DNA of 25,264 bases, taken from positions 1-25,264 of the IMG/VR virus record IMGVR_UViG_3300049893_001348; one strand, written 5' to 3'. Position 1 is the stretch's first letter. Each line of letters begins with the position of its first letter. The stretch is from a virus. Shown one piece after another: positions 16,508 through 20,778 of this stretch. Position numbers and translations under genes: made by a program. The notes below the pieces were generated by a model. That model was not told the DNA's origin, ran no database searches, and was given only the letters and a program-made list of their open reading frames with translations.

Positions 16508-17098
16508 CATGCCTGCCATTCCACTCCTCTTCGCGCCCATCCGGTCCAGTCCAGTCCGCTCCTGCCAGTCCTCTCCTGTACACTCCGTTCCGGTCCGCGC
16601 CATTCCTGTCCTCTCCTTTCCATTCCTGCCGTTCCCTTCCCGTCCATTCCACTACTTGCCGATCCGATCCGCTCCGCTCCTGCCACTCCGCTCCGCTCCG
16701 CTCCAGTCCGTTCCGGGCCCCGCCGTTCCTGTCCCTTCCTTTCCTGCCGTTCCGTTCCCGTCCGCTCCATTCCGCTCCGCTCCGTTCCGCTCCGGACCTG
16801 TCCCTTCCTGCCAGTCCTCTCCGGTCCACTCCTTTCCGGTCCAATCCTTTCCGGTCCAATCCTGCCGTTCCCTTCCTGTCCGCTCCTCCCCTGTCCCGTC
16901 CAAACCGTTCCGCCCAGGCCGTTCCTGCCGCTCCCCTCCGCTCCTCTCCGCTCCGCTCCAGACCTCTCCTCTCCTGCCATTCCTGTCCCGTCCCATCCTC
17001 CCCTGTCCGCTCCAGGCCTATCCTTCCCGCCCATTCCTGCCTATCCACTCCGCTCCGGTCCGCGTCGTTCCCATCCCATCCCTTCCTGCCATGCCAAC
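16508..17098 (-). repeat. Degenerate GGANN pentamer array with GGCA spacers (~0.6 kb, non-coding)
   Basis: On the leftward (mRNA-like) strand GG recurs every five bases for nearly 600 bases. Over a hundred units are mostly GGANN (GGAGC, GGAAC, GGACA, GGAAT, GGACC and similar). About a dozen four-base GGCA units interrupt the series, usually every 9-12 pentamers, giving an irregular 45-65 base higher-order period. Some local copies are near-exact, such as a 15-base unit GGATTGGACCGGAAA repeated in tandem near 16840-16870. Because the period is not a multiple of three and lacks most stop trinucleotides, several frames on both strands stay open and none looks like a protein. The array fills the gap between the 259-residue gene and ssb. 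Confidence 0.9.
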
Positions 17099-17103
17099 AG
17101 ACA

Positions 17104-17123
17104 CGCCGGGCCGAAGCCCGGCG
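17104..17123 (-). terminator. Stable C(UUCG)G hairpin after the 17136-17915 gene
   Basis: On the leftward strand, CGCCGGGC, loop TTCG, GCCCGGCG form a perfect 8-bp stem closed by the extra-stable cUUCGg tetraloop, 12 bases after the stop codon of the 259-residue gene and just before the pentamer array. Only a weak T-rich stretch (TGTCTGTTGG) follows, so it may be a partial terminator or an RNA processing and stability element that separates that gene from ssb. Confidence 0.55.
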
Positions 17124-17135
17124 CGCTGATCTCTC

Positions 17136-17915
17136 TCAGGCCACGCGCAACTTGCGCGCCGGCTTTTTCTCCTGCGGCTCATCGAGCGAAGCGCGCCACG
17201 CCTCGACATCGGGCAGGCGCGGCTCGAGCTGCTTGCCCGTCAGCCAGCCGGCGCATCGCTTGGCTTCCGCTGCGTTCGCCACGGCGAAGCCACCGTACTG
17301 CCCGTCCTTTTCCATGCGCCACTCGCACAGCCCGACCGCAAAGCCCGCCGTGTTGAGCAGGTTGATGATCTGCTCGGGCGACATGACGTTGCGGTTGTGC
17401 TCGACACGGATCTTCATGCACCACGGGAAAAACTCTGCCCGATAGCGCAGGTCTGCCGTGCCCATGCCGACGCGCACGCTGTCCTCGCGCATCCGGGGCG
17501 GCTCAGGCGTGCCGATCCGCACGAGGTCAGTCGGCGACATGATGTCGCAGAAGGCGCCCGTCGAGGTGCCGCGCTCGCCGATCACACGGAACGCCTGCCG
17601 GGCAGCGACCTTGGTCACGCCGCTGATGCTGGTGCAGGCAGTCACCATCGCGTTCTTTACGCCCACGGCGGGGATGCCGAAGTGGCCGTCATCGGTGCGG
17701 TAGAGGCTATTGAGGAAGTCCTCGATGGGGTCCTTAGCCTCCTTGGCGCCGACCGGGATCTTCATCTGCTTCGCCAGCATTTCCCGCTTCGCCTTCTGCG
17801 ACCAGGCGTGAACGATCAGCGGCGTGGTGCCGACGATCATCACGTCGATGGTGTTCAGCACCAGCGGGGCGAGGTTGATCTGCATCGTATTGCTTGTCGT
17901 TTTTGCGGTTGCCAT
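17136..17915 (-). CDS. Conserved phage protein, candidate single-strand annealing protein
   Basis: A 259-residue protein of a type I have seen in phage recombination regions but cannot name. Visible features: VMIVGTTPLIVHAWSQKAK at residues 25-43, a DPIEDFLNSLYRTDDGHFGIPAVGVKNAM stretch at 62-90, ARQAFRVIGERG at 105-116, and a basic C-terminus (EKKPARKLRVA). It shares an operon with an SSB and a PD-(D/E)XK exonuclease, the set that normally includes a RecT/Erf/Red-beta annealing protein, and no other candidate is present. The TPLIVH and IPAVGVKNA segments also faintly recall the hydrophobic and glycine-loop motifs of RAMP proteins; this is weak. The ATG has a GGAG ribosome site. The function is an inference from context. 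Confidence 0.6.
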   Translation of the reverse strand: MATAKTTSNTMQINLAPLVLNTIDVMIVGTTPLIVHAWSQKAKREMLAKQMKIPVGAKEAKDPIEDFLNSLYRTDDGHFGIPAVGVKNAMVTACTSISGVTKVAARQAFRVIGERGTSTGAFCDIMSPTDLVRIGTPEPPRMREDSVRVGMGTADLRYRAEFFPWCMKIRVEHNRNVMSPEQIINLLNTAGFAVGLCEWRMEKDGQYGGFAVANAAEAKRCAGWLTGKQLEPRLPDVEAWRASLDEPQEKKPARKLRVA

Positions 17916-17960: not shown

Positions 17961-18410
17961 TCAGGCGGCCTTCTTTTTCCGCGCACTGGCCCGCACCTTT
18001 GCCGCTGCCTCGAACACGGCAGCCAGCTCGGTCAGGGTCCGGTACTTGGATTCGTAGTACGCCAGCTCGGCGAGCGCGTCCTCCAGCATCTGCGCCCGCA
18101 GTGCCGCCGTGGATAGCACGTCGGACACGCGCCGGTAGCCGCCCCCGTGCTTGCGCTCGCTGCGCAGGCTGACGATGGCACGGCTGCGCACCGGCTTGTC
18201 GTCGATCATGGTGATTTCCCAATACTGGCAGAGCAGTATGCGGGCCTCGCTTTCGAGGTTCTTCTGCCAGCCCTTCACCTTGTCCCAGGTGAATGCGCTG
18301 TGCAGCGGGCTGCGTGAATTACGGGCAGCACTGATGACATGAGTCGCGTTGATGCGCTTGCCGTGCTTTTCGAACAGCGCATCGATAGCGGCCTTTTGAT
18401 TGACGTTCAC
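17961..18410 (-). CDS. Conserved phage early protein, unknown
   Basis: A 149-residue protein with start GTG 18410 (GGGAGGG ribosome site, directly after the previous stop). The segment AARNSRSPLHSAFTWD..KGWQKNLESEARILLC is a recurrent phage motif (S.SPLH..F.WD....) found in early regions, of unknown function. The rest is helical (LRAQMLEDALAELAYYESKYRTL) with a Lys/Ala-rich basic tail (KVRASARKKKAA) that could bind nucleic acid. It is encoded upstream of the candidate annealing protein in the same operon, with 45 bases between. Confidence 0.6.
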   Translation of the reverse strand: MNVNQKAAIDALFEKHGKRINATHVISAARNSRSPLHSAFTWDKVKGWQKNLESEARILLCQYWEITMIDDKPVRSRAIVSLRSERKHGGGYRRVSDVLSTAALRAQMLEDALAELAYYESKYRTLTELAAVFEAAAKVRASARKKKAA

Positions 18411-19673: not shown

Positions 19674-19975
19674 CGACCACAATCGCCCGCCAGCATCGCG
19701 CCAGAGGCGCCTGTAATCGCCTGTGGGGCGACTTCTGGCCGCCCCGCTACCTGACAGAGGGTCAGGCGAGCGCGAGTAAAGCGGCCGAGCTGCCGCCTTG
19801 GTATTGTGCGGCGCAAAATAAATCCCATCTCCACCCCGCCGGCAAACGGGGTTACGTGCGCACCCCGGTAGACCCGGATCGATGCGTGGTGCTGGCGCCG
19901 TGGGTTGACTTTCGGGGGCCGGCACTCCGGTCGGGCATCATCACAACCATCAGGAGGGCGTGGCGTGGCAGGTAG
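19670..19975 (+). CDS. Early protein, unknown
   Basis: A 101-residue protein beginning in an ATGA overlap with the regulator stop, with a GAGGAAAGC ribosome site. It is Arg- and Trp-rich: ARQHRARGACNRLWGDFWPPRYLTEGQ, then LPPWYCAAQNKSHLHPAGKRGYVRTPVDPDRC. The composition is unusual and I recognise no family. Its last bases overlap the ribosome site and start of the next gene (GTG 19965). It probably is real because of the coupled start; I cannot assign a function. Confidence 0.5.
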   Translation: MTTTIARQHRARGACNRLWGDFWPPRYLTEGQASASKAAELPPWYCAAQNKSHLHPAGKRGYVRTPVDPDRCVVLAPWVDFRGPALRSGIITTIRRAWRGR

Positions 19976-20576
19976 GCCCTATGGCAACAGCTTGACCGTT
20001 GATGTAAACGCCAAAGGCGTATTAGACGTTGATGTTGTCAAGGGCTGTACGGCAGGGATCGCGGCACACGGCAGCAAGGGGTGCTACCAGGCATGTTATG
20101 CGGCCAGCATAGCGTTATTTCGTGGAATTGATTTTTCTCGCGCTGTCGTGCGCCACGTCCATACGAAAGCACAGGCCGCACTCATAGAGCGCGCAGTCAA
20201 GTCGTCGCCGTATGGATTTTTCCGCATCGGCACAATGGGCGATCCATGTCATGCGTGGGAAGAGACTGTGCGCACTGTTGAGTGGCTGGCACCGTACGCT
20301 ATACCAGTCATTTTTGTCGTCATGACCGGCGACAGCAGAGATAAAAACGGTGCGTATTATTGTTCGGAAGCCGAGACCGAGTTGTTCATGCGCGACCAGG
20401 GTCTTAGCGTGTACAACAGAATTGTCTATCTGGAATCTGAATTCACTCGGCTTGCACACGCAAAAAGAACCTTGAATACGAGAAAATTTCCCAAACGAGA
20501 GCAAAAAATTATTGTTGCCTACAAAGGGAAAATTAAAAACATCGACAAAGAATTTCAAAAAATTGGCCGCTTATAA
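19965..20576 (+). CDS. Cysteine-motif protein, possible radical-SAM-related or GP88-like
   Basis: A 203-residue protein from GTG 19965 (AGGAGG ribosome site 7 bases upstream). The N-terminal half has K-G-C28-T-A-G-I-A...G-C40-Y-Q-A-C44-Y-A-A-S-I-A, then F.RIGTMGDP-C-HAWE (residues 87-99) and an IPVIFVVMTGD strand. The motif CY..CYA with a following GDP..AWE strand resembles environmental and phage proteins related to GP88 or to unusual radical-SAM barrels. However, the cysteine spacing (C-x11-C-x3-C) is not the standard radical-SAM CxxxCxxC. The C-terminal part is Lys-rich (KFPKREQKIIVAYKGKIKN). The gene is clearly more AT-rich than its surroundings, particularly after 20330, which points to recent acquisition. 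Confidence 0.55.
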   Translation: MAGRPYGNSLTVDVNAKGVLDVDVVKGCTAGIAAHGSKGCYQACYAASIALFRGIDFSRAVVRHVHTKAQAALIERAVKSSPYGFFRIGTMGDPCHAWEETVRTVEWLAPYAIPVIFVVMTGDSRDKNGAYYCSEAETELFMRDQGLSVYNRIVYLESEFTRLAHAKRTLNTRKFPKREQKIIVAYKGKIKNIDKEFQKIGRL

Positions 20577-20577
20577 G

Positions 20578-20778
20578 ATGTACACCACTGTGGATATCTT
20601 CCCGACCTACAAGGGCAAGCCACGGCGCTGGCACAAGACCGTCACGCCGGAAATGGCACGGGCTATACAGGACACCCATCGTACCGAGCGGTTGCGCTAT
20701 CGCGAGCTGGCCGAACGCTACGGCGTATCCGTGGCAACCGTGCATCGGATGGTGTCGCTGCGGTGGCCGCAGCCATGA
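20578..20778 (+). CDS. Small helix-turn-helix protein
   Basis: A 66-residue protein: MYTTVDIFPTYKGKPRRWHKTVTPEMARAIQDTHRTERLRYRELAERYGVSVATVHRMVSLRWPQP. Residues 41-61 (YRELAERYGVSVATVHRMVS) form a canonical resolvase/sigma-type helix-turn-helix. The GC content returns to the phage norm here after the AT-rich gene upstream. The ATG follows the previous stop by one base. It ends in an ATGA overlap with the next gene. A DNA-binding regulator of the right early operon is the likely role. Confidence 0.65.
   Translation: MYTTVDIFPTYKGKPRRWHKTVTPEMARAIQDTHRTERLRYRELAERYGVSVATVHRMVSLRWPQP

What the first reader, a model, noticed from the sequence alone, without database searches (positions are those of the whole stretch)
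16508..17098. A 0.6-kb array of degenerate GGANN pentamers with GGCA spacers inside a phage recombination operon
GG recurs every five bases for nearly 600 bases on the transcribed-sense strand, with third base mostly A and two free bases, interrupted by four-base GGCA units about every 9-12 pentamers. This two-level order is not coding, since the period is incompatible with one frame and several frames on both strands are open without protein character. It is not a CRISPR and is too long for a normal operator. It lies between a candidate annealing gene and ssb. A purine-rich, G-pair-rich nascent RNA would favour R-loops. GGA repeats can form G-tetrad structures or G-A paired hairpins (as in satellite GGAAT repeats). 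Plausible roles are a replication origin or primer site, a recombination entry point, a control element for SSB, or a decoy for host nucleases.
Basis: seen in the sequence. Interest (0 to 1): 0.82.

Follow-up and report, generated by a model that had tools for sequence, protein, structure and literature searches.

The report
Phage VIPR guide-RNA array, GGA variant
The odd five-base repeat is most likely a bank of about ten guide-RNA segments of a VIPR system, a recently described CRISPR-like weapon that phages appear to use against rival phages, but with GGA as the fixed triplet where the published system mostly has GGC or GGT.

Summary
The array is real: on the minus strand, 17090 to about 16514, it reads as ~108 GGANN pentamers punctuated by GGCA 4-mers every 9-12 units, far beyond shuffles. 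It is not an isolated oddity. Arrays of the same kind lie beside Vipr homologues in phages of many hosts, always on the vipr strand; a phrog_15946 gene (likely vap) lies near vipr in 41 of 48 loci. VIPR was described in a 2026 preprint (PMC13142463): the NN pairs are guides that read double-stranded DNA with a 1-base skip. The window array therefore most likely encodes about ten vrRNA guides. Two things differ from the published main text: the fixed triplet is GGA, not GGY, and guides run head to tail with a conserved GGCA mark. GGA use is scattered over the Vipr tree. One guide (S8) matches a conserved terminase motif in five phages with the skip at the codon wobble; this is suggestive, not proof. 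No transcript, binding or activity was tested.

The parts
16508..17098 (-). VIPR guide-RNA (vrRNA) array: ~108 GGANN pentamers with GGCA punctuation, read 5'->3' on the minus strand
   Evidence: parse and shuffle test; same element beside Vipr homologues in other phages
17038..17086 (-). guide segment S1 (9 pentamers + GGCA); NN: AG TG TG AC GC CC GC GT TA
16975..17023 (-). guide segment S2 (9 pentamers + GGCA); NN: TA CT GC CA GA TG CG CA AT; the 14 bases before it (GGAATGGGCGGGAA) parse ambiguously
16926..16974 (-). guide segment S3 (9 pentamers + GGCA); NN: GA GA CT GC GC GA GC GG GC
16863..16911 (-). guide segment S4 (9 pentamers + GGCA); NN: AC TT CG CA GA GC CA AG AC
16809..16862 (-). 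guide segment S5 (10 pentamers + GGCA); NN: TT CC AA TT CC AA GT CC GA CT
16745..16808 (-). guide segment S6 (12 pentamers + GGCA); NN: AG CA CC GC AC GC GC AT GC CG AC AC
16681..16744 (-). guide segment S7 (12 pentamers + GGCA); NN: AA AG CA AC GG CC AC CT GC GC GC GT
16627..16680 (-). guide segment S8 (10 pentamers + GGCA); NN: GC GC TC TC AA GT AT CG AG AC; candidate target: terminase large subunit motif VLRITFDDA
16563..16626 (-). guide segment S9 (12 pentamers + GGCA); NN: AT AA GA CA AT GC CC AC GT CA GA CT
16514..16562 (-). guide segment S10 (9 pentamers + GGCA); NN: GC CT CT CC TG GC GA GT AT
17105..17122 (-). very stable GCCGGGC-UUCG-GCCCGGC hairpin directly 5' of the array; possible 5' cap or processing signal (inference)
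   Evidence: sequence and fold; a comparable hairpin precedes some but not most other arrays
17136..17915 (-). vipr: Vipr/RAMP protein (phrog_4652), 259 aa
   Evidence: phrog_4652 E=8e-28; family profile vs PDB 36pp_D SUSP1 Vipr E=3.3e-23; predicted model vs Csm3/Cas7 by Foldseek E~1e-5 and VIA-align Z 10.8
17961..18410 (-). phrog_15946 gene, likely VIPR accessory (vap)
   Evidence: homologue near vipr in 41 of 48 loci; phrog_15946 E=7e-9

Best explanation
The window carries a VIPR system: vap-like gene, vipr gene, then an array of about ten vrRNA guides with the consensus GGA-NN. The array is most likely transcribed with the operon. Vipr subunits would coat each 9-12-unit segment, one subunit per pentamer, holding GGA and exposing NN. 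Concatenated NN pairs would then pair with double-stranded DNA of a rival phage or prophage as NNxNNxNN, the skipped base usually being the codon wobble, and the complex would block transcription. GGCA would mark guide boundaries. Shown here: the array, its association with a Vipr-family gene, the RAMP fold prediction, the conserved neighbour gene, and NN composition closest to codon positions 1-2. Known from the preprint for GGY systems: RNP formation, the 1-nt skip rule, silencing. Inferred: that the GGA variant works the same way, that GGCA is the boundary and how it is processed, and what the targets are.
For: Family profile hits solved SUSP1 Vipr, E=3.3e-23; predicted fold is Csm3/Cas7-like. 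Ten other loci found by the array pattern alone have a homologue of this gene beside the array, on the same strand. Conversely, of 37 loci found by the Vipr protein, about 23 have a strong GG-pentamer array within 4.5 kb and several more have weaker ones; every array is on the vipr strand; none in 323 kb of control DNA. SUSP1's own locus shows the same kind of layout. Guide lengths of mostly 9-13 pentamers fit the published 9-16. In 182 of 229 guides the NN pairs fit codon positions 1-2 (sense or antisense) best of six registers. GGCA keeps C at position 3 even inside GGA arrays (62 of 67 four-mers). Mechanism: PMC13142463.
Against: The published main text gives GGY, not GGA. By single-sequence search the window Vipr is a weak match to SUSP1 Vipr (21% identity, blastp E=6e-6; phmmer E=0.05); the link rests on the family profile and fold. 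No structured 3' tail like SUSP1's was identified. Five of the six guides searched gave no convincing target in viral contigs, and S8 and S9 none in ~350-400 genomes of the probable host order. Ten of the 48 loci had no array detected by the scanner, although three of them (L032, L036, L042) show degenerate ones.
Confidence: 0.92

Rival explanations
1. A TRAP-like regulatory RNA: a protein ring of about 11 subunits binds the GGA triplets and controls expression of downstream ssb and nuclease genes.
For: 5-base period with a fixed triplet and 2 free bases, 9-13 units per block, resembles TRAP's (G/U)AG-NN x 11 (own knowledge); the array lies inside an operon.
Against: The neighbour is a RAMP-fold Vipr protein; NN pairs follow codon positions 1-2; arrays occur in different operon positions and in several relatives are followed by a terminator-like hairpin.
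Confidence: 0.03
2. A DNA-level element (replication origin, primer site, recombination entry) bound by the neighbouring protein.
For: Sits among recombination genes in this window.
Against: The recombination setting is not shared: several relatives lie beside integrase, repressor or excisionase genes; strand always matches vipr; published vrRNAs are RNA that copurifies with Vipr (PMC13142463).
Confidence: 0.03
3. A decayed or non-functional remnant of a VIPR array.
For: Some units depart from GGA (16 of 108 third bases, 5 second bases); S2 and S4 have ambiguous registers.
Against: Vipr frame is intact with conserved glycine-rich loop residues; GG kept in 103 of 108 units across 590 bases while NN vary freely.
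Confidence: 0.04

Closest known systems
VIPR (Viral Interference Programmable Repeat), PMC13142463; SUSP1 VIPR, PDB 36pp
   Same: Phage-encoded RAMP protein next to sense-strand pentamer arrays with fixed GG+1 and hypervariable NN; guides mostly of 9-13 units; accessory gene
   Different: Fixed triplet GGA instead of GGY; about ten guides head to tail with GGCA marks rather than separate ~100-nt vrRNAs with structured tails; accessory gene is phrog_15946, with no blastp match to SUSP1 vap1
Class 1 CRISPR RAMP proteins (Csm3, Cas7)
   Same: Predicted fold; periodic binding along a guide RNA
   Different: No CRISPR repeats and no recognised cas genes here; guide read in pairs with gaps, 5- not 6-base period
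TRAP ((G/U)AG-NN repeats)
   Same: 5-base period with triplet plus two free bases
   Different: Different protein fold (own knowledge); in TRAP sites the NN carry no target information

Membership tests
VIPR | Vipr protein homologue (RAMP: RRM core, G-loop, thumb) | tested here: met
   profile hit to SUSP1 Vipr E=3.3e-23; Csm3/Cas7 fold, Z 10.8; G-rich loop conserved; thumb not examined separately
VIPR | tandem pentamer RNA with fixed GG and hypervariable NN next to vipr | tested here: met
VIPR | third base of the fixed triplet a pyrimidine (GGY) or 'a related consensus' | tested here: inconclusive
   85% A here, so GGY is not met; whether GGA is among the 'related' consensus forms is in a supplement (fig. 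S17) that could not be read
VIPR | 9-16 repeats per vrRNA | tested here: met
   9, 10 or 12 pentamers between marks in the window; two 2-unit fragments
VIPR | vap accessory gene | tested here: inconclusive
   phrog_15946 gene near vipr in 41 of 48 loci; that this is one of the published vap1-6 was not verified
VIPR | conserved structured 3' tail on vrRNA (stated for the SUSP1 clade) | tested here: inconclusive
   none identified; GGCA mark only; flanks folded
VIPR | 1-nt-skip targeting of DNA of competing elements | tested here: inconclusive
   codon-like NN pairs and S8 match to terminase genes; other guides without convincing target
VIPR | vrRNA expressed and bound by Vipr | not testable with these tools
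   needs RNA sequencing and pull-down
CRISPR-Cas Class 1 | CRISPR repeats with spacers plus cas genes | tested here: not met
   no repeat-spacer structure in the array; of the window proteins scanned with Pfam/PHROGs, none is a named Cas protein

The most novel reading that the evidence does not exclude
A purine-code (GGA) form of VIPR that arose more than once among GGY systems, with many guides packed head to tail and separated only by a conserved GGCA mark that itself keeps C at position 3. A single helix residue (window M90: M or L in all 11 GGA or mixed loci, A or T in 23 of 27 GGY loci) may help set the third-base preference.
Probability: 0.45. Interest if true: 0.62.

Novelty: new variant of a known kind. 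Interest (0 to 1): 0.55.

Why it matters
It extends a newly described class of RNA-guided systems, proposed as ancestral to CRISPR, to a different fixed triplet and a compact multi-guide array, and ties an unannotated phage protein family (phrog_4652, with relatives in well-known mycobacterial, Gordonia, Pseudomonas and coli phages) to it. If GGA and GGY systems use matching proteins and RNAs they could be orthogonal programmable tools, and the loci give natural pairs for finding what sets the code.

Tried and rejected
Rfam search: no family. Direct structure of the array RNA: no better than shuffles. Target searches with the 1-nt skip: S9, S7 no viral match; S6, S5 and S1 gave one or two gene families each, at the level expected by chance, some not in the wobble register; S9 with up to 3 mismatches in 347 genomes gave one 3-mismatch match; S8 with up to 2 mismatches in 397 genomes gave 13 matching genomes against 5 matches of the reversed-pattern control, none of the 13 in a terminase. 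The other nine guides do not match the five terminase-bearing phages better than shuffled guides. No window guide matches the rest of the window closely. Guides of all loci against the loci fetched by then: no better than shuffles. Profile alignments of the family were too diverse for the search for related loci.

Full report
Observation. On the minus strand the stretch 17090-16514 parses as 108 five-base units, GG in 103, A third in 92, last two bases free, with GGCA four-mers every 9-12 units. The score is 137.9 against a maximum of 10.5 in 200 dinucleotide shuffles, and lag-5 self-match 0.61 against 0.35. Openness of frames is a by-product of the unit: GGANN can make a stop only through TAG and its complement can make none.

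Neighbours. The gene 5' of the array (17136-17915, minus) is phrog_4652, unknown function; no Pfam match. Gene 17961-18410 is phrog_15946. The window is a 25 kb virus record.

The element recurs. A pattern scan of viral contigs for one GGCA and five GGANN units gave 15 loci; most hold long arrays of different sequence with the same two-level order. In ten of them a homologue of the phrog_4652 gene lies beside the array on the same strand. Starting from the protein instead, phages of Mycobacterium, Gordonia, Pseudomonas and a cyanobacterium, 29 viral contigs and 6 bacterial contigs were fetched. Most have GG-pentamer arrays in the gaps around the gene, but with C or T at the third base. With the window and the ten array-selected loci set aside, 23 of 37 loci pass a strict score (34 of 48, less 11); some others are degenerate (L032, L036, L042) or near a contig end (L050). 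All arrays lie on the gene's strand, and none was found in 323 kb of control DNA.

Identity. A profile of the family finds one real match in the PDB: 36pp_D, SUSP1 Vipr protein, E=3.3e-23. The AlphaFold model (pLDDT 79) matches CRISPR Csm, Cmr and type VII RAMP chains (Foldseek E about 1e-5; VIA-align Z 10.8 over about 150 residues). PMC13142463 (2026 preprint) describes VIPR: Vipr, an ancestral RAMP protein, binds vrRNAs of 9-16 YNNGG repeats; NN pairs read double-stranded DNA with a 1-base skip, usually the codon wobble; natural targets are rival phages, satellites and prophages; silencing and phage defence were shown. The SUSP1 locus fetched here has the same kind of layout with GGT units.

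What is different here. The fixed triplet is GGA (85%) in the window and at least 73% A in eight other loci; two more are mixed. The closest Vipr relatives of the window (55-60% identical, including Mesorhizobium and Xanthobacteraceae bins) use GGY. On the Vipr tree the GGA label needs 5 changes, at least 2 forced by well-supported branches; L011 (GGA) pairs with the cyanophage (GGC) at full support. Long branches make the exact number unsure. Within GGA arrays the four-mer is still GGCA in 62 of 67 cases, so C in the four-mer looks like a signal rather than a dropped base. Guides between four-mers are 9-13 units in most cases. Alignment column 219 (window M90) is M or L in all 9 GGA and both mixed loci, and A or T in 23 of 27 GGY loci. 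This was picked as one of the best of some 200 columns without correction for relatedness, so it is a lead.

Do the NN pairs carry targets? In 182 of 229 guides from all loci the NN pairs fit codon positions 1-2, sense or antisense, better than the other four registers. Part of this reflects the extreme third-position GC of the codon table used, taken from the window. For the window the base make-up of NN (G-rich, T-poor first; C-rich second) is close to that of codon positions 1 and 2. Searching six guides of the window with the 1-base skip, S8 gave five exact 18-of-18 matches (units 2-10), all in one gene family, terminase large subunit (phrog_2 for the two tested), 37-76% identical to one another, all at the motif VLRITFDDA or its close form, antisense, skip at the wobble. 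Unit 1 does not match. Because one chance match in a conserved motif brings its homologues along, and each scan returned about one family by chance, this is suggestive only; I put it near one in two. Nothing else in those phages is matched by the other guides.

Mechanism, with status. Shown by computation: array, gene association, fold prediction, conserved neighbour. Taken from the preprint for GGY systems: RNA binding, skip rule, silencing. Inferred for this locus: transcription with the operon, cutting at or near GGCA, one Vipr per pentamer, silencing of rival phage genes. The stable UUCG hairpin at 17105-17122 just before the array may protect or delimit the 5' end; strong hairpins precede a few other arrays but not most, and several relatives have a terminator-like hairpin after the array instead.

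Verdict. A VIPR system with high confidence; new variant of a known kind because of the GGA triplet and GGCA-marked multi-guide array, with the caveat that the supplement of the preprint (related consensus, fig. S17; staggered arrays, fig. S18) could not be read and may already include either feature.

Noticed in passing
L022 3594-3898; L023 4629-4790; L024 3623-3874; L025 4584-5523; L026 4617-4936: Named phages LESphi2, Gordonia ODay and UmaThurman, Mycobacterium BobaPhett and cyanophage Cy-LDV1 carry unannotated GGC/GGT pentamer arrays beside 'hypothetical protein' Vipr genes.
   Followed up: yes
phages collection: 134 phage records, mostly Felixounavirus-like coli and Salmonella phages, hold a homologue of the LESphi2 Vipr; the rows listed call it hypothetical protein or leave it unannotated.
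   Followed up: no
L014 3840-5191: A divergent Vipr-like gene flanked by GGANN arrays without any GGCA marks; guide boundaries unclear.
   Followed up: partly
L031 7227-8352: 229-unit GGY array whose four-mers are mostly GGCC rather than GGCA.
   Followed up: no
L043-L045, L048, L053: Vipr homologues with a phrog_15946 neighbour but no detectable pentamer array nearby; the array may be elsewhere, lost, or of another consensus.
   Followed up: partly
window 19905-20778: Local GC drop (about 50%) with a partial methyltransferase-like match (phrog_498) and an HTH protein; possible recent insertion.
   Followed up: no
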